Assembly (NCBI GenBank): GCA_902810755.1
Contig: CADDYT010000186.1
Location: 1 to 10,841, forward strand
Reading direction: 5' to 3'
Length of the DNA stretch: 10,841 bases
Source: Chloroflexota bacterium
GTDB taxonomy: Bacteria > Chloroflexota > Ktedonobacteria > Ktedonobacterales > Ktedonobacteraceae
This document shows positions 2,708 to 9,555 of the stretch, one piece after another (position 1 is the first letter of the stretch; each line of letters begins with the position of its first letter). Both the position numbers and the translations under genes were made by a program. The notes beneath the pieces are model-generated. The model saw only the letters and a program-made list of their open reading frames with translations, had not been told where the DNA came from and did not search any database.

Positions 2708-4081
2708 TTATGTTGATGATTTCATTGCGCTAATCAAATCCGGCAGCAGCTTGTAGGCGACAGGGGCGCCGAGGCCGGTGATGGGGTCCCAGCCGATGGC
2801 GGCGGAATAACCTTGCACGTTGACGCCGTGACTGTGGACGCTGTTGTTGCCGCTGGTGATATCGTAGAAATCCTGATTATACTGGCTCGTGGTCGACAGC
2901 CTGTAGAGCGCGGGATTGAGAAAGCCGAGGGGGTGACCGGCCATCTGGTTAGCAATGGCGGTCAGACCGGCCCAGAAGGGCGCGCTGGCGCTGGTGCCAC
3001 CGGCAAGCCCCCATTGACCCTGGAAGTAGATGGCAAGCCCGGTATCGGGATCGGCGGGCGCGGAGATATCCGGGACGCCGCGCCGGTGATTGAGCAGACT
3101 CTGCACGGAGGCGGGCAGAAGTTGCTGGTAGCTCGGCTCTGTATAGAAGGAACTGAAGCCGCCGCCGCTGCCACTCCACGCCGTCTCCTGGTAGGTCTCC
3201 CCCACACTATTGACGGTAGTGCCGCCGCAGGCTGTGATCCAGGGATTGTCGGCGGGGAAGCTGGTCGTCGGCGTAGGCGAGAGCTTCGTGGCCTGCAGGT
3301 CGGTGTAGTCGGTTGCGCCGTTATCTCCGGAGGAGCCAAAGAAGGTCATGCCCTGCTGGGTGGTCGCCTGCTGGAAAAACGTATTCCATTTCTGCAATTC
3401 CTGCTGCCCTGCCGTGTCCTTCAACGTGACTTCAGACGCGCCCCAGCTCTGAGAGACGATGTTGCCGAGGTGGTGCGCGAGAGCGTACTGTTCCAGTTGC
3501 AGGAATTCAGGCAGCCCGACCGTTCCCTCGGTCTCCGCTACCGGGCTGGTCATGACGATGATGTTGGCGCCGGGGGCGATGGCGTGGATGATCTGCACAT
3601 CCAGTTCGGTTTCGCCCGCCCAGCCGTTCATATCGTGGTTGGGATCATAGGTTGGCTCGTTGACCACATTGGAGATGACCTGAATGTTGATCGGCGGCAG
3701 GCCAAATTCCTGATCGAACCTGTCCATATCCTGCTGGAGCGTGGGGCTGCCGAAGGAGACAATATCGATGATGGTTTGCCCCTTGCCTGTATAGCCCTGC
3801 TCGATCAATGGTTCAATACCGAAGGCGACGCGCATCTGGTGAGGCGTCAGGCAGGTCAGGCCGCCACCGCTGTTATTGAGGCCCTCAATGGGGCAGGTAT
3901 CGTCCTGGGTTGGTGTCGGGCCGCCGGGAAGCTGAGTATCTGGCGTGACATCGGGGAAAGGCTTTGCCGGTGTGGGCGTCGTGTTCCCACTACCCAGGGG
4001 GCCAGGCAGGCTGCACCCCGCCAGCAGCAGGAGCGAGAACAGAAAGATGGGGAGGAACCGCCGAAATGGATATCTGGTCAT
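2708..4081 (-). CDS. S53 family (sedolisin) serine-carboxyl peptidase, predicted lipoprotein, no propeptide
   Basis: This is a predicted secreted, lipid-anchored endopeptidase of the sedolisin family. These enzymes have a subtilisin-like fold with a Ser-Glu-Asp triad and often work at acid pH. Residues 1-23 form a lipoprotein signal with the lipobox LAGC (Cys23), followed by a Pro/Thr-rich linker to about residue 75. The catalytic domain then starts directly. Visible residues are Glu157 and Asp161 in GETELDVQ, oxyanion Asp253 in SSGDNG, and nucleophile Ser364 in GGTSASAP. The C-terminal calcium site is Asp407-Ile408 with Asp432 in GWDPITGLG. All key residues are present, so it should be active. 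The family normally has a propeptide of about 150-200 residues before this domain, and there is no room for one here. The start ATG has AGGAG 10 bases upstream, in the 19-base gap after the stop of the upstream paralogue, so the pair is probably one transcript. By eye the two catalytic domains are about two-thirds identical, which indicates tandem duplication. Confidence 0.92.
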   Translation of the reverse strand: MTRYPFRRFLPIFLFSLLLLAGCSLPGPLGSGNTTPTPAKPFPDVTPDTQLPGGPTPTQDDTCPIEGLNNSGGGLTCLTPHQMRVAFGIEPLIEQGYTGKGQTIIDIVSFGSPTLQQDMDRFDQEFGLPPINIQVISNVVNEPTYDPNHDMNGWAGETELDVQIIHAIAPGANIIVMTSPVAETEGTVGLPEFLQLEQYALAHHLGNIVSQSWGASEVTLKDTAGQQELQKWNTFFQQATTQQGMTFFGSSGDNGATDYTDLQATKLSPTPTTSFPADNPWITACGGTTVNSVGETYQETAWSGSGGGFSSFYTEPSYQQLLPASVQSLLNHRRGVPDISAPADPDTGLAIYFQGQWGLAGGTSASAPFWAGLTAIANQMAGHPLGFLNPALYRLSTTSQYNQDFYDITSGNNSVHSHGVNVQGYSAAIGWDPITGLGAPVAYKLLPDLISAMKSST

Positions 4082-4100: not shown

Positions 4101-5558
4101 TTATTGCAATGCGGCGATCAGGTCAGGGATGAACTGGCTGGCCTGCGGGCTGCCCAGGCCGGTGACCGCGTCCCAGCCCGGCACGGCCTGAAAGCCCTGC
4201 ACCTGCACCGTTCCATTGTTGACGTTATTGTTGCCGACAGTAATATCGCGAAAATCTTGCTGCGCACGCGCGGAGGCCGCGAGCTTGTAGAGGCCAGGGT
4301 TGATGAAGCCGAGCGGGTGACCCGCCATCTGGTTGGCGATGGCGACGATGGCCGCCCAGAACGGCGTGCTGGCGCTGGTGCCGCCCGTCTGATCCCACTG
4401 CCCGTTAAAGTAGAAAGCCAGGCCCGTATCGGGGTTGGCATCGGCGGCGATATCCGGGATGCCGCGCTGGCCCCCCAGCAGCGATTGCACCGAAGAGGGC
4501 ATGCCGCGCTGGAAATCCGGCTCGCTGAAAAACTTGCTGGTGCCGCCGCCGCTGCCCGACCAGGCAACCTCATTGTAGCTATCGCCTGTGTGCAGCAAGG
4601 TCGTGCCGCCGACAGCTGTCACCCAGGGAACATCTGCCGGGAAGTTGACGGTGCGCGTGGGCGATAGCTTCGTCGCGGCGATGTTTGCCCAGTCGGTCGC
4701 CCCGTTATCCCCGGAGCCGGAGACAATAGTGAAGCCCTCCTGTGTGGTGATCTGTTTGTAGAAGTCGGTGTAGGTTTTGACAAGCTGCTGCCCTGCGCTA
4801 TCGGAGAGCGTGACTTCTGAAGCCACATAGCTCTGTGAGAAAATCTGGCCGAGGTGGTGTGAGACGGCGTATTTTTCCAGATCCAGAAATTGCGGCAGGC
4901 CAATTGTCCCCTCGGTCTCGTCGACCGGGCTGGTCATCACGACGATATTTGCATCGGGCGCGATGGCATGCATAATCTGCACATCCAGCTCGGTCTCGCC
5001 TGCCCAGCCAACCATATCCTGATTATTCGGGTCGAAAGGCACGGTGCCGAGCGGGGCAACGACCTGTATGTTGATAGGCGGGAGGCTGAACTGCCGGTCA
5101 AAGACATCCATATCCTGCTGCAACGTGGGGCTGCCATATGAGACGATATCGATAATGGTCTGCCCCTTGCCCGTGTAGCCGCGCTCCGTCAGCGCCTCTA
5201 CGCCATAGGCCAGGCGCAGGGCGTAAGGAGTATAGCAGTTCTGATTCCTGTTCAACGGTGCGGGACAGGTGAGCTGTGCTGTTGTCGGTGTAGGTGAGGT
5301 AGTGGTTTTATGTGTTGGCGTCGCCGCCGGTGTACCGCTGGCATTGCCCCCACTGCTCCCCGGCAAATCGCAGGCCGCGAGCAGGAGAACGAAGATCAGC
5401 AGTGGAAACAGGCGTGAGCAGGCCACGCGCAAGGGAGTGGCCCTACTATACGATGGGCGACCGTACGGCCTGTGGAGGAGCCGTGTATAGTAGGGCCACT
5501 CCCTTGCGCGTGGCCTGCTCGGACTTACAATAACGTCCATGGGGGTAGACCTGTGCAT
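4101..5558 (-). CDS. S53 family (sedolisin) peptidase paralogue with a hairpin-derived N-terminal extension
   Basis: This is a second sedolisin, upstream of its paralogue in the same direction. Key residues are Glu188 and Asp192 in GETELDVQ, Asp284 in GSGDNG, Ser395 in GGTSASTP, and calcium ligands Asp438-Ile439 and Asp463. The hydrophobic signal LFPLLIFVLLLAAC with lipidation Cys63 is followed by a Ser/Thr/Pro linker and then directly by the catalytic domain, again without a propeptide. The oddity is the N-terminus. About 48 residues precede the hydrophobic core, and most are encoded by a perfect 36-bp inverted repeat (5416-5520) that reads through without a stop. The paralogue needs only 22 residues before its cysteine. 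The true start is uncertain. ATG 5558 has GAGG three bases upstream, ATG 5540 has a weak site, and an in-frame TTG at 5432 would give a signal of the paralogue's length but has no ribosome site. Insertion of the repeat probably displaced the original start, so export or expression may be altered. The catalytic part looks intact. Confidence 0.85.
   Translation of the reverse strand: MHRSTPMDVIVSPSRPRAREWPYYTRLLHRPYGRPSYSRATPLRVACSRLFPLLIFVLLLAACDLPGSSGGNASGTPAATPTHKTTTSPTPTTAQLTCPAPLNRNQNCYTPYALRLAYGVEALTERGYTGKGQTIIDIVSYGSPTLQQDMDVFDRQFSLPPINIQVVAPLGTVPFDPNNQDMVGWAGETELDVQIMHAIAPDANIVVMTSPVDETEGTIGLPQFLDLEKYAVSHHLGQIFSQSYVASEVTLSDSAGQQLVKTYTDFYKQITTQEGFTIVSGSGDNGATDWANIAATKLSPTRTVNFPADVPWVTAVGGTTLLHTGDSYNEVAWSGSGGGTSKFFSEPDFQRGMPSSVQSLLGGQRGIPDIAADANPDTGLAFYFNGQWDQTGGTSASTPFWAAIVAIANQMAGHPLGFINPGLYKLAASARAQQDFRDITVGNNNVNNGTVQVQGFQAVPGWDAVTGLGSPQASQFIPDLIAALQ
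5416..5520. repeat. Perfect 36-bp inverted repeat, REP-doublet (REPIN)-like element
   Basis: Positions 5416-5451 and 5485-5520 are exact reverse complements over 36 bases, separated by 33 bases that contain the palindrome CCGTACGG (5461-5468). Each arm is itself a small hairpin: GGCCAC, a 10-base spacer, GTGGCC (5494-5499 and 5510-5515 in the right arm). A GTAG sits directly 5' of that hairpin (5490-5493 on +, mirrored at 5446-5443 on -). A GTAG tetranucleotide next to a short imperfect palindrome is the known signature of REP sequences mobilised by RAYT (TnpA-REP) proteins, and two inverted REPs form a REPIN. No transposase gene or target-site duplication is visible here. The element lies in the 5' part of the upstream S53 gene and could also act as an mRNA stem-loop. 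The class assignment is inference; the repeat itself is certain. Confidence 0.75.
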
Positions 5559-5906: not shown

Positions 5907-8210
5907 ATGTCAGCAGAGAAGTCACTGGCGCAGTATGATCCTGATGTGAGCGTTTCTGATGGCGCGCTGGCGGAACGCCTGGGTGACGCGGCGCTGGTCG
6001 GGGACTGGTTTGTGTTTGTGAAAGCGAGCTGGCTGGTGCGTTCGGGCATGGCGGGCCTGCTGGCGGCTTCTGGCGTTGAGAAGATACCGGTCAAACCGGC
6101 CATTTTCTTTCGTGGGGAAGAGATGACGCTGCCGGGGGCGAAGATAGCGGCGAAGAAGCTGCCGCGCCCATCCCTGGTTTCATTGACCAGCGATAAGATG
6201 TTGTACCGGGCCAACCGCGACACAGTGCGTTTGCTGCTCGTCGATTTCCAGCGTGCCAGCGCGTCTGTGCGCCTGCGGCTGCGTTTGAGCGGCAATCCCT
6301 ATGCCGATTATCCGGTGACGCTGGATGAATATGGCCTCTGTCTCTGGTCGATGCAGGGGCTGCCGGAGGGCGAGTACGAGGCGGTGATGGTCGCGGGCGA
6401 GAGCGAATCGGCCTCCTGCCGCTTCGAGGTGGCCGAATACCGGCTCGCGCCGCTCAACGCCGAATTGAACGACCAGCAACTCAACGGCGATGTTCTGCGC
6501 TATACGCTTTCCGTGACAGCATTCGGCCAGCCATATAGCGGCCCGGTCGAAGTGGAGTTGCAGGAGCGCGGGCAGCGCGTGGGTAAGCGTGAAAAGCTGA
6601 ATTGCAATCGCGAGGGCATCTGTCGCGGCGCGGTCAAGTTGACGGGGCAGGGGCCATACACGCTGAACCTCTTCGCGGGCGAGCGCACGGCAACGGTGGC
6701 CCTGAAAGGCTCAGAGCAGGAACGGCGCGAGACGCTGTCCATCAGCGAACTGGGCGAGCAGCGTCTGTTGAGTTTGCTGCCGCTGCCGCAATCTAATGAG
6801 TGCCGGGGCATGTATATCACACGCGGCGGGACCAATACGCAGCCGTTTCTGGTGCGGCGCGTCATTGGCAGCACAGTGGAGATCGCGGCGCGCCAGGATG
6901 TGGAGTTGTTGCGCGTCGTGGTGGTCGATCCGGCGCGCGGCACATATGAACAGGCCGTGCGCGAGAATCTGAAGGCCGATAGCAGCGTGCAGGTGCCGAT
7001 ACCCGAACCGTATGGCGTGGTGCTGCTTGGCGCGCTGATCGATGATGCCGCCTGGGAGGGCTGGTGCGCTGTTCTGCGCCCTTCAGACATCCAGTTGCAG
7101 TGCGAAGCCCCGGCGGAGGCGAAGCCAGGTAGCCGCGTGACCATCACCCTCAAGACGGGTGTGCCAGATCATGTGGTGCCTGTGCAGGTGATTGTGAAAG
7201 ACCAGCGCCTGATCTCGCCGAGCGACCCGCAGGTGGAACTGGCGGCGAGCATCAAGAAGAATCTGGCAAACTGGCGGGAGAGTACGTTTACGGGCAAAGT
7301 TGAACGCGAACTGCGCCAGCTGGGTAATGCGTGGCCTGCCGGTGGCCGGGGCAGCCCGCGCTTCAGGGCAATGGCATCCTACGGGCAACCGACGGCGTTT
7401 GCCGCGATCCCACCACCATCACCTGTTATGTCCGCTCCCCTGCCGCCCACCGCTCCTCCCATGATGGCTGCTGCCTCTATGCCGACAGCACAGGCCATGC
7501 GCGTATATGAGAGCGCATCGGTTTCCGCAGCCACTCAACGCGACCAGGCGCAGCAGGTAGCTACTGCCGCACCACCGACGACGCTGGCGAAGATGCGGCT
7601 GCAATTTCCAGAGGTCGTCTATAACAACGTTGTGAAGGTGCAGGGCGAGGCGCGCGTCGAGGTGAAGCTGGGCGATAGCATGACCCGCTACACTATCGAA
7701 GCTTTCGCGCTTTCCCCGCAGACGATGGACTGGCAGCGTGTGGAGACAACGCTGGAGGCGATGCAGCCGGTCTACGGAGAACTGACCGTTTCGCCCTTTG
7801 TCTTCCCCGGCGATCCCGTCATGGGCCGCCTGGACGTAGGAGCGTCATCGGGCAGCGCGCTGGTGGAAGTGCGCCACGATGACGAAGTATTGCCCCTCTT
7901 TTTCGCTGATGGCTCGGAGGTGATGCCCGGCCTACCCGTTCCGTCCGGCTCCGCGCTGCGCTTCCCCGTTCGCCCCGGCGCGATCACGGCGACGGTACGC
8001 GACGCGCGCAAGGGCGGAGTCGATGTGAGCGAACGCTATGTGACGGAGCCGGGCAAGCTGCGCCACCTCACGCGCCGCCTGCGCCTGCTCACCCCCGGCG
8101 ACGAGGTGACATTGCAGGAGCAGCGCCTGCTGGAGATCGCGCCGCTCCCCGGACTGGAGCGGCCCTTCCAGTTCTTTGTCGAGGGCGCGGCAAAATACCC
8201 CTTTGGCTGA
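5907..8210 (+). CDS. Alpha-2-macroglobulin-like protein, N-terminal MG domains, ending at a TGA at the thioester cysteine
   Basis: This is the first 767 codons of an A2M-like protein, a family that traps proteases through a bait region and a reactive thioester. A macroglobulin (MG2-like) domain starts near residue 91 with LTSDKMLYR. An MG3-like unit starts near 175 with FEVAEYRLAP. A bait-region-domain-like segment begins at 395 (IQLQCEAPAEAKPGSRVTITLK, the typical PG-V-T-T pattern) and leads to a Pro/Ala/Met-rich stretch at about 485-560 that sits where the bait region belongs. The FPE segment at 567-569 and the following GEARVEVKLGDSMTRYTIEA match the A2M core domain. The reading stops at FVEGAAKYPFG, exactly before the position of the thioester Cys. 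The same frame continues open to 9485. There is no signal peptide or membrane segment, and an in-frame TGA at 5886-5888 excludes a longer N-terminus. AGGTGG lies 4 bases before the ATG. Either this is the 5' part of one recoded gene (favoured) or a truncated product. Confidence 0.85.
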   Translation: MSAEKSLAQYDPDVSVSDGALAERLGDAALVGDWFVFVKASWLVRSGMAGLLAASGVEKIPVKPAIFFRGEEMTLPGAKIAAKKLPRPSLVSLTSDKMLYRANRDTVRLLLVDFQRASASVRLRLRLSGNPYADYPVTLDEYGLCLWSMQGLPEGEYEAVMVAGESESASCRFEVAEYRLAPLNAELNDQQLNGDVLRYTLSVTAFGQPYSGPVEVELQERGQRVGKREKLNCNREGICRGAVKLTGQGPYTLNLFAGERTATVALKGSEQERRETLSISELGEQRLLSLLPLPQSNECRGMYITRGGTNTQPFLVRRVIGSTVEIAARQDVELLRVVVVDPARGTYEQAVRENLKADSSVQVPIPEPYGVVLLGALIDDAAWEGWCAVLRPSDIQLQCEAPAEAKPGSRVTITLKTGVPDHVVPVQVIVKDQRLISPSDPQVELAASIKKNLANWRESTFTGKVERELRQLGNAWPAGGRGSPRFRAMASYGQPTAFAAIPPPSPVMSAPLPPTAPPMMAAASMPTAQAMRVYESASVSAATQRDQAQQVATAAPPTTLAKMRLQFPEVVYNNVVKVQGEARVEVKLGDSMTRYTIEAFALSPQTMDWQRVETTLEAMQPVYGELTVSPFVFPGDPVMGRLDVGASSGSALVEVRHDDEVLPLFFADGSEVMPGLPVPSGSALRFPVRPGAITATVRDARKGGVDVSERYVTEPGKLRHLTRRLRLLTPGDEVTLQEQRLLEIAPLPGLERPFQFFVEGAAKYPFG

Positions 8211-8244
8211 ATCCAGCAAACGTCGGCTAAGGTCTTAGCCATGT
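8208..8244 (+). promoter_or_regulatory. In-frame TGA followed by a bacterial SECIS-like hairpin
   Basis: Twenty bases separate the TGA (8208-8210) from the apical loop. GGCTAAGGTCTTAGCC (8225-8240) folds into six perfect pairs closing a GGTC loop (8231-8234). Below it, 8220-8223 can pair with 8241-8244 (one G-U), leaving C8224 as a single-base bulge. Bacterial SECIS elements sit just 3' of the UGA, with a G among the first two loop bases and the loop roughly 16-37 bases from the UGA. As I recall, the E. coli fdhF element GGUUGCAGGUCUGCACC has its loop 18 bases from the UGA and the same apical hexamer AGGUCU. The 3' strand uses the only in-frame TTA codon of the whole A2M reading. Functional status is inference. 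The hairpin also overlaps the AAGG that could serve ATG 8241. Confidence 0.55.
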
Positions 8245-9485
8245 ACACCGGCTACATCACCAATCAGGAGGATGAGGAAGCGGCCCGCGAGTACGAGGCG
8301 GCCATCCTCGTCTGGTATAAGCGGCTCAAGAGCATGTACCTGCCGGGCAGCGGCTTCTGCCTCTACCCGCCGGAAGAGGGCGGCGCGCGGAAGCCGGACA
8401 CCTATTGCGCTCCGCTGGGCGTCAGGCACCTGCTCAACCTGCCCACCGCTCAACGGTCCGGGCTGAAGAACCCGGCCCTGCGCGATCTGCTCGACGACAT
8501 TCGCGCGATGACGGGCGATGCTGCTGCCTGTTACAAACTCGATTACCCTCCAAAGAAGATCAGCGATTGCCACGCGGCCTACCAGGCGCTCGCAAACGGC
8601 TCCTCAGCGCAGGTGAAGAGCGAGGCGCTGGCCTATGTGCGCTCGCGCCTGAAAGAACAGCACGGGCAAACGTATGTCGAGGTGCAAGACAACCAGCCAT
8701 CGTATCGCCTGTGGGGCATGGCGGTTTCTACGCGGGAGGAAACGGCCTACGCGGCTGCCGCGCTGCTGGCGGGCGGAGAGCCGGGCGATTTGCCGCGCGC
8801 CATCGCCGCCACCAACTACCTGACGGGCCAGTTGAACGAAGAAGGGCGGCTCTATAGCACTGTCGATACGGCGGCCTGTCTCGCCCTGATGATCGGCCTG
8901 CGCAACGCCGGGGTGGTGACGACGCCGCAGAGCGGGCGCGTCGCCCTCAACGGGCAGGAGATGGCGCTGGCCGAGGCGCTGGCCTACCAGGGCAAGGTGG
9001 AGACGCTGCGCGCCGTAGAGGGCGTCGTTTCGGCCCAGCTCACCTCCGAAGTGATTGAGGACTGGAGCGCGTTCAAGAGCAATCTCCCGGTCGAGGTACG
9101 GCTGGAACGCAAGGGCCGCGTCCAGAGGCATTTCAAGGTTGGCGACGAACTGGACCTCGTCATCAGCGTGCCGCGCTACGAGCCGGGACTGATTGCCCAT
9201 GTCTGCCTGCCGGACGCGCTGGCGCGGGTCGTCGGGGGAGGCCAGGTCAAACGCTTCAGCCTGGATTTCACCGAAAAGTCTGTCCTGCGCGTCCCCCTGG
9301 CAGCCGTTGGCTCGACCGTGCTGCCGCAGGGCAAAGACGGGGCCGCGCAACATGGCCTGCTCCACTGGCTCGGTATCAAACGCGAGAGCGAACAGTCCGT
9401 CCAGCACTGGGCCGTGATCGTGCGCAACATGTTCAAAGAAGAGCAAATCGGCAACCCCGGCCTGCTCGAAGTCTCCGTCGCATAA
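8241..9485 (+). CDS. Alpha-2-macroglobulin-like protein, thioester (TED) helical domain and C-terminal beta domain
   Basis: This is the continuation of the A2M reading frame, given here from its first ATG after the TGA (414 residues). It is in phase with the upstream part: the TGA at 8208 and the ATG at 8241 are 33 bases apart. Codons 8211-8240 between them read IQQTSAKVLA, the expected sequence right after a thioester cysteine. The part up to about full-length residue 1040 is helical and alanine-rich. It has the TED-like segments VSTREETAYAAAALL and LNEEGRLYSTVDTAACLALM, which compare with the repeated helical hairpins of the complement C3/A2M toroid. From about residue 1062 there is a beta-rich domain (FKVGDELDLVISV) like the last MG/receptor-binding region. 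As an independent gene it would lack its first helix, and its only possible ribosome site is AAGG (8229-8232), which lies inside a hairpin. I therefore regard it as part of one gene, although reinitiation is possible. Its codon use is like the upstream half and shows no decay. Confidence 0.8.
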   Translation: MYTGYITNQEDEEAAREYEAAILVWYKRLKSMYLPGSGFCLYPPEEGGARKPDTYCAPLGVRHLLNLPTAQRSGLKNPALRDLLDDIRAMTGDAAACYKLDYPPKKISDCHAAYQALANGSSAQVKSEALAYVRSRLKEQHGQTYVEVQDNQPSYRLWGMAVSTREETAYAAAALLAGGEPGDLPRAIAATNYLTGQLNEEGRLYSTVDTAACLALMIGLRNAGVVTTPQSGRVALNGQEMALAEALAYQGKVETLRAVEGVVSAQLTSEVIEDWSAFKSNLPVEVRLERKGRVQRHFKVGDELDLVISVPRYEPGLIAHVCLPDALARVVGGGQVKRFSLDFTEKSVLRVPLAAVGSTVLPQGKDGAAQHGLLHWLGIKRESEQSVQHWAVIVRNMFKEEQIGNPGLLEVSVA

Positions 9486-9555
9486 GCCAACTCAGAAGCC
9501 AACTCAGAGATGTCATGCTTCGCTCCCGCTCAGCATGACATCTCTGAGTTGGCTT
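9484..9555. repeat. Tandem 12-bp repeat fused to a perfect 24-bp hairpin after the A2M gene
   Basis: AAGCCAACTCAG occurs twice in tandem (9484-9495, 9496-9507). The second copy begins a perfect 24-bp inverted repeat (9496-9519 with 9532-9555, 12-base loop). The hairpin starts 10 bases after the A2M stop and may end its transcript. It has only a short T run after it, so factor-independent termination is uncertain. The loop side carries TGTCATGCTGAGCGG on the - strand (9526-9540), identical to the core of the repeat at 5736-5750, so this is a member of the same dispersed palindromic family. Confidence 0.75.

What the first reader, a model, noticed from the sequence alone, without database searches (positions are those of the whole stretch)
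5907..9485. Alpha-2-macroglobulin whose thioester cysteine codon is TGA: candidate selenocysteine A2M
The sequence shows two halves of one A2M-like protein in the same frame, separated by one TGA. The residue before it is the Gly of YPFG, and the residues after it are I-Q-Q-T-S-A-K. The family motif YP(Y/F)GCxEQ places the thioester Cys precisely at this codon. A random nonsense mutation would have to hit 1 codon in 1192, and the halves show no other damage. Replacement of a catalytic Cys by UGA-encoded Sec is an established pattern in selenoproteins. I know of no described A2M or complement-like protein with Sec at the thioester, which would create a selenoester trap.
Basis: partly seen in the sequence, partly recalled or inferred. 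Interest (0 to 1): 0.95.

Follow-up and report, generated by a model that had tools for sequence, protein, structure and literature searches.

The report
Selenocysteine alpha-2-macroglobulin in Ktedonobacteria
A bacterial gene for an alpha-2-macroglobulin, a family of protease traps, carries a UGA codon exactly where its reactive cysteine should be, and 95 related protein predictions break off at the same spot, so the codon is most likely read as selenocysteine, which would make the trap's warhead a selenium bond rather than a sulfur bond.

Summary
Window 5907-9485 is one A2M gene with a single in-frame TGA (8208-8210) at residue 768, the thioester Cys. It is no lone mutation: of 108 newly listed shorter homologues, 95 end exactly one residue before that Cys and the other 13 carry the Cys. 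All 120 homologues listed have Cys there. The two states interchange at least 13 times on supported branches, and the downstream half of interrupted genes is not relaxed. A GGUC-loop hairpin after the UGA meets the published bacterial SECIS constraints and holds the only TTA of the gene's 127 Leu codons. SelB passes its cut-off in 41 of 47 class genomes and tRNA-Sec scores 60 bits or more in 40. I conclude: a selenocysteine A2M family. A Sec-Gln selenoester is inferred. Limits: the window's genome is not held, other interrupted genes were seen only as proteins (stop codon unseen), no class genome searched had an interrupted copy, and the generic SECIS model is weakly specific.

The parts
5907..9485 (+). 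A2M gene, 1192 residues when TGA 8208-8210 is read through; ends in TAA
   Evidence: Translation; Pfam A2M PF00207 at residues 577-638, 22.2 bits against cut-off 21; AlphaFold2 model mean pLDDT 81.8 matching E. coli and human A2M, CD109 and complement
8208..8210 (+). In-frame TGA at the thioester Cys position (residue 768), predicted selenocysteine codon
   Evidence: recurrent stop at the same residue in 95 of 108 newly listed homologues
8220..8244 (+). SECIS-like hairpin: lower stem 8220-8223/8241-8244, bulged C 8224, upper stem GGCUAA/UUAGCC 8225-8230/8235-8240, apical loop GGUC 8231-8234
   Evidence: Fold -9.7 kcal/mol; meets the four bSECIS constraints quoted; a GGUC-loop hairpin with at least 6 pairs at this spacing follows 234 of 738,488 positions; 37 of 4000 synonymous recodings do as well under the generic model
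8235..8237 (+). TTA Leu codon inside the hairpin, the only TTA of 127 Leu codons in the gene
   Evidence: Codon counts
8217..8219 (+). Gln771, the predicted acyl partner of residue 768
   Evidence: Gln in 120 of 120 aligned homologues; role from the CxEQ thioester chemistry in passages of PMC3328433 and PMC4498604
7338..7601 (+). Disordered Pro/Ala-rich stretch, residues 478-565, predicted bait region
   Evidence: pLDDT under 50; sequence printed; bait role inferred from position
8157..8909 (+). Helical thioester domain (TED-like), residues 751-1001
   Evidence: Secondary structure of the model

Best explanation
The gene encodes an alpha-2-macroglobulin whose in-frame UGA lies at the conserved thioester cysteine position and is most likely decoded as selenocysteine with the help of the hairpin just downstream. 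SelB and Sec-tRNA would read the UGA; this step is predicted from the hairpin and from Sec machinery in relatives. Sec768 would then attack the side chain of Gln771 to form an internal selenoester in place of the usual thioester (inferred from family chemistry). Cleavage of the disordered stretch 478-565 by a protease would expose the bond and let it acylate the protease, a more reactive version of the A2M trap (inferred). Ktedonobacteria switch between the Cys form and the interrupted, predicted Sec form repeatedly (shown on the protein tree; that each interrupting stop is a UGA is assumed).
For: Exact recurrence: 95 of 108 newly listed hits end at YP[FYH]G and the other 13 contain the Cys. 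89 of 110 newly listed downstream hits start at the Met equivalent to M779. Cys in 120 of 120 aligned homologues. Tree of 88 interrupted and 108 Cys rows: 15 changes, at least 13 forced by supported branches; a careful tree of 39 chosen rows gives 8, at least 5 forced, with the Cys form P0002 nested inside an interrupted clade. Downstream/upstream divergence ratio 0.84 in interrupted genes against 0.99 in Cys genes. The ten codons between TGA and the next ATG still encode IQQTSAKVLA, including Gln771. Hairpin evidence. FdhA locus L043 has a TGA followed at 18 nt by a GGUCU-loop hairpin of 6 pairs, -10.4 kcal/mol. SelB over cut-off in 41 of 47 and tRNA-Sec at 60 bits or more in 40 of 47 class genomes (the next best match listed is 52.2 bits); UCA anticodon in 9 of 9 loci given to ARAGORN, of 15 fetched. 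The window's aspartokinase is 74% identical to that of G024 of this class; G024 has both SelB and tRNA-Sec.
Against: No DNA of another interrupted gene was obtained, so it is not shown that the other stops are TGA or that the hairpin is conserved. The window's own genome is not held. None of the 47 class genomes searched has an interrupted copy: 4 of 47 have the gene (in G002 only residues 761-1191) with no stop, although three of them (G001, G002, G022) have SelB and tRNA-Sec. The generic bSECIS model passes at 379 of 1173 codons of this gene (198 in the stricter form), and 39 of 1173 match the window's quality. The longest window piece folded, 48 nt, is not unusually stable (z -0.81, 42 of 200 shuffles as good; 43 nt z -1.54; 31 nt z -2.72). 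A Cys gene, L011, also has a 6-bp G-loop hairpin there. The GGUC motif test was chosen after seeing the hairpin, and five of the seven TGA triplets that pass it have no known meaning. In L043 the GGUCU hairpin is the best fold of short pieces only; the 48-nt piece prefers another fold at -19.8 kcal/mol.
Confidence: 0.9

Rival explanations
1. The TGA is a nonsense mutation or sequencing error in an otherwise Cys-type gene.
For: The close relative P0002 (89% identical over residues 560-1150) has a full-length Cys form, and G024 shows that the gene can decay: L041 keeps only residues 1-58 and 1127-1191.
Against: 95 of 108 newly listed homologues stop at the same residue; large interrupted-only clades; no relaxation downstream; TTA-containing hairpin after the codon.
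Confidence: 0.03
2. UGA is a true stop and the cell makes two separate chains: a 767-residue N-terminal part and, by re-initiation at ATG 8241, a 414-residue C-terminal part.
For: Databases hold the two halves as separate proteins; AAGG lies 8 nt before ATG 8241 and could be a weak ribosome site (sequence).
Against: The ten codons between the stop and the ATG keep the frame and the family sequence with Gln771. A split would not need its stop at precisely the catalytic Cys codon in many lineages (inference). The C-terminal chain would lack the reactive pair.
Confidence: 0.05
3. UGA is read as Cys or another residue by a different tRNA, either globally or as leaky readthrough.
For: None of the six genes of the window ends in TGA.
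Against: The 13 other Cys codons of the gene are TGT or TGC, so UGA is not a general Cys codon; tRNA-Sec is common in the class, with anticodon UCA in the 9 loci checked; a SECIS-like hairpin follows this codon.
Confidence: 0.02

Closest known systems
Bacterial alpha-2-macroglobulins (E. coli ECAM/YfhM, Salmonella A2M)
   Same: A2M fold over most of the chain (5a42, 4u48, 4rtd); thioester Gln conserved; disordered stretch ahead of the A2M domain
   Different: UGA at the thioester Cys; Gln instead of Glu in CxEQ; shorter (1192 residues against 1597 in chain 5a42); no evident signal peptide or lipobox by inspection of the N-terminus
Complement C3/C5, TEP1, CD109
   Same: Same superfamily fold
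   Different: Eukaryotic, no selenium known to me; far in sequence (9-14% identity for the listed C3, C5, TEP1 and CD109 chains)
Bacterial selenoproteins such as formate dehydrogenase FdhA
   Same: In-frame TGA with a GGUC-containing hairpin at similar spacing (L043)
   Different: Sec in FdhA serves redox/Mo chemistry (recalled); here it would sit in an acyl-transfer warhead
Published prokaryotic selenoprotein families
   Same: Sec/Cys pair, Cys homologues, SECIS
   Different: The terms macroglobulin and thioester had no occurrence in the main text of two reviews and one prediction paper queried (PMC9312934, PMC13188914, PMC12013277; term look-ups and passages only; supplements not seen)

Membership tests
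Alpha-2-macroglobulin family | A2M domain by curated profile | tested here: met
   PF00207, 22.2 bits against cut-off 21
Alpha-2-macroglobulin family | MG domains plus helical thioester domain fold | tested here: met
Alpha-2-macroglobulin family | CxEQ thioester motif | tested here: inconclusive
   Window reads TGA-I-Q-Q; Gln kept, Cys replaced by UGA, Glu replaced by Gln
Alpha-2-macroglobulin family | Protease-sensitive bait region | tested here: inconclusive
   Disordered residues 478-565 predicted; cleavage not testable
Alpha-2-macroglobulin family | Covalent trapping of proteases | not testable with these tools
   Needs biochemistry
Bacterial selenoprotein | In-frame UGA aligned with a conserved Cys of homologues | tested here: met
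   Cys in 120 of 120
[quoted passage not shown]
   Loop GGUC, 6 bp, 20 nt, -9.7; the model alone is weakly specific (379 of 1173 codons pass)
Bacterial selenoprotein | Conserved coding sequence after the UGA | tested here: met
   75% mean column identity among 18 downstream parts; divergence ratio 0.84 against 0.99
Bacterial selenoprotein | UGA in homologues of other genomes | tested here: inconclusive
   95 of 108 newly listed proteins stop at this codon, but the stop codon itself is not visible in protein records; 4 of 47 class genomes have the gene, none with a stop
Bacterial selenoprotein | selA-D in the same genome | not testable with these tools
   Window genome not held; SelB in 41 of 47 and tRNA-Sec at 60 bits or more in 40 of 47 relatives; SelA and SelD not searched
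Bacterial selenoprotein | Selenium in the protein | not testable with these tools
   Needs 75Se labelling or mass spectrometry

The most novel reading that the evidence does not exclude
Ktedonobacteria build a complement-like protein trap whose warhead is an internal Sec-Gln selenoester, a covalent acyl-transfer bond in which selenium replaces sulfur, and they have switched between selenium and sulfur versions of it more than ten times.
Probability: 0.6. Interest if true: 0.93.

Novelty: new variant of a known kind. Interest (0 to 1): 0.88.

Why it matters
As far as I recall, Sec is known in proteins mainly as a redox residue. Here it would occupy an acyl-transfer position, in the thioester of the superfamily that includes complement C3. 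If a selenoester forms, it would be a new natural protein bond and would allow a direct test of selenium against sulfur in the same trap, since relatives carry the Cys form. About a hundred genes are likely misannotated as two separate proteins, and the repeated switching between Cys and interrupted forms offers a natural experiment on why cells choose selenium.

Tried and rejected
Rejected: lone nonsense mutation; global UGA reassignment; two-chain re-initiation as the main explanation.

Led nowhere: Rfam listed no SECIS family in the window among matches up to E 5; its six matches are all below gathering score and five of them sit on the two inverted repeats. Plasmid records: none. Viral contigs: no relative. 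The one genome-contig scan used two motifs, of which the one at this site contains the Cys; it gave two Ktedonobacterial Cys loci, L001 and L002, and four distant loci, and no interrupted gene. Search of 121 genomes drawn from the phylum: only G001, G003 and G022, all without a stop. The generic bSECIS test proved too permissive to carry weight alone. P0001 has no NCBIfam match at E 0.001. Literature, in the open-access library held: no paper held all of selenocysteine+macroglobulin+thioester+UGA, selenocysteine+selenoester+thioester-containing protein, Ktedonobacter+macroglobulin or selenocysteine-containing+alpha-2-macroglobulin family; macroglobulin+SECIS+selenoprotein+bacteria gave one cancer review, seen in the listing only. 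Searches were seen as listings. Papers seen as passages found by term: PMC5330540, PMC12013277, PMC13188914, PMC5424206, PMC1794560, PMC9312934, PMC3328433, PMC4498604; none was read whole.
Full report
Observation. The window holds aspartokinase, aspartate-semialdehyde dehydrogenase, two subtilase-like peptidases on the minus strand, the A2M gene and a CHAP-domain gene. The A2M frame 5907-9485 contains one TGA at 8208-8210 and ends in TAA. The TGA is residue 768; the preceding Gly is part of YPFG and the following residues are IQQTSAKVLAM. One search found 225 homologues and listed 120; in their alignment the column is Cys in 120 of 120, the Gln three residues on in 120 of 120, and the Glu before it in 119 of 120.

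It is an A2M. Pfam gives A2M just over its cut-off, and a sequence profile finds human A2M weakly. The AlphaFold2 model from 52 sequences (mean pLDDT 81.8, pTM 0.62) shows beta-rich domains, a disordered stretch 478-565 and a helical domain 751-1001 with residue 768 just before a helix. Foldseek and VIA-align match E. coli and Salmonella A2M, human A2M, A2ML1, CD109, TEP1 and complement.

Recurrence. One search was designed to admit homologues too short to be full-length; 130 passed and 120 are listed. Of its 108 newly listed proteins, 95 end exactly at YP[FY]G (79) or YPHG (16), and the other 13 contain the Cys. Its remaining 12 rows were already listed, all with Cys in the alignment. One search found the other halves (138 passed, 120 listed): of 110 newly listed, 89 start at the Met equivalent to M779, the first usual start codon after the stop in the window; 10 contain the Cys motif; 11 are other fragments. 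At least 18 upstream/downstream pairs share the same longest-contig length and a source label (the pairing is inferred), among them the locus tags ACJ8CB_09135 and ACJ8CB_09130. Lists are capped, so these are not totals.

Evolution. A FastTree of the upstream parts (88 interrupted, 108 Cys) needs 15 changes between the states, at least 13 forced by supported branches. A careful IQ-TREE of 39 chosen rows needs 8, at least 5 forced; P0002, the Cys form 89% identical over residues 560-1150, pairs with interrupted P0131 (100/100) inside an interrupted clade, and holding 13 interrupted rows of that neighbourhood together without it is rejected (one of those 13, U_P0134, also lies elsewhere on the tree, which adds to that rejection). 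Paralogy of these rows was not resolved. The downstream half diverges 0.84 times as fast as the upstream half in interrupted genes and 0.99 times in Cys genes, the opposite of decay.

SECIS. After the UGA the RNA folds into GGCUAA-GGUC-UUAGCC on a short lower stem, -9.7 kcal/mol; against shuffles the 31-nt piece stands out (z -2.72), the 43-nt and 48-nt pieces less so (z -1.54, -0.81). The constraints given in a figure legend of PMC13188914 (loop 3-9 nt, stem 4-16 bp, G in the first two loop positions, 16-37 nt spacing, at most -7.5 kcal/mol; passage seen) are all met, with a spacing of 20 nt. That model is permissive: 379 of 1173 codons of the gene pass, 198 in a stricter form, and 39 of 1173 match this hairpin's strength; of 4000 synonymous recodings 37 do. 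A narrower motif, a GGUC-loop hairpin with at least 6 pairs at 16-24 nt, follows 234 of 738,488 positions in the sequence then held, overlapping loci included, and 7 of 10,905 TGA triplets, five of them without known meaning; that motif was chosen after seeing the hairpin. It also follows the TGA of a formate dehydrogenase in this class (L043), where the GGUCU hairpin has 6 pairs and -10.4 kcal/mol and is the best fold of short pieces, while the 48-nt piece prefers another fold at -19.8. I recall the residues around that TGA as the classical FdhA Sec site, and the loop as resembling that of E. coli fdhF. Of 127 Leu codons in the A2M gene the only TTA is in the hairpin. Of four Cys-type genes examined at DNA level none has a GGUC-loop hairpin, though one, L011, has another 6-bp G-loop hairpin.

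Machinery. No genome is held for the window. Its aspartokinase is nearest to members of the class of Ktedonosporobacter (74% to G024, 72% to G001), and by eye the gene order peptidase, peptidase, A2M, CHAP-like gene is the same in Ktedonosporobacter rubrisoli (L001). In that class SelB passes its cut-off in 41 of 47 genomes (in 2 of 14 control genomes). tRNA-Sec scores 60 bits or more in 40 of 47 by my count of the table; the tool's own cut-off (43 of 47, and 5 of 14 controls) also lets in matches of 47-52 bits that look like other tRNAs, so I did not use it. Of 9 such loci given to ARAGORN (of 15 fetched) 9 have anticodon UCA. The A2M gene itself is in 4 of these 47 genomes, without a stop in each, so the interrupted form was not seen at DNA level outside the window.

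Mechanism. In A2Ms the CxEQ Cys and Gln form a thioester that is exposed when a protease cuts the bait region and then acylates the protease (passages of PMC3328433 and PMC4498604). In the window the Gln is kept and only the Cys codon and the Glu differ from the motif; in the other interrupted genes the stretch between the stop and the Met could not be seen. I therefore infer Sec768 and a Sec-Gln selenoester that would react faster than the thioester. The Glu-to-Gln change in the window and P0002 touches a residue that, per a figure legend in PMC4498604, contacts a tyrosine guarding the thioester; its effect is unknown. The protein has no evident signal peptide by inspection, so where it acts is open.

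Verdict. Sec at the thioester site: 0.9. Selenoester: about 0.6. The selenoprotein papers that I could query do not mention macroglobulin in their main text, and no paper in the held library joined the terms searched in a relevant way.

Noticed in passing
2708-4081 and 4101-5558, minus strand: Two tandem, diverged peptidase copies (repeats 77% and 71% alike), Pfam Peptidase_S8, lipoprotein-like N-termini by eye; by recall they resemble sedolisins (S53). A similar pair lies beside the A2M in Ktedonosporobacter, so they may be the trap's partners or targets.
   Followed up: partly
5416-5451 / 5485-5520: Perfect inverted repeat with 36-nt arms and 33 nt between, inside the 5' end of the ORF 4101-5558; the true start of that gene is probably further in.
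   Followed up: no
9496-9519 / 9532-9555: Perfect inverted repeat with 24-nt arms just after the A2M gene.
   Followed up: no
8214-8216: CxEQ reads U-I-Q-Q: Glu replaced by Gln, shared among 120 aligned homologues only with P0002.
   Followed up: partly
homologues P0150-P0197: A Cys4 zinc-ribbon-like motif at the N-terminus of 23 homologues, all of them interrupted forms, which suggests an intracellular protein.
   Followed up: no
L041 (G024), 1256-1689: A remnant of the A2M gene with the middle missing: residues 1-58 and 1127-1191 remain 80 bases apart.
   Followed up: partly
L043, minus strand 1759: Formate dehydrogenase with in-frame TGA and a possible GGUCU-loop hairpin, a likely selenoprotein in Ktedonobacteria.
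   Followed up: partly
whole window: None of the six genes ends in TGA.
   Followed up: no
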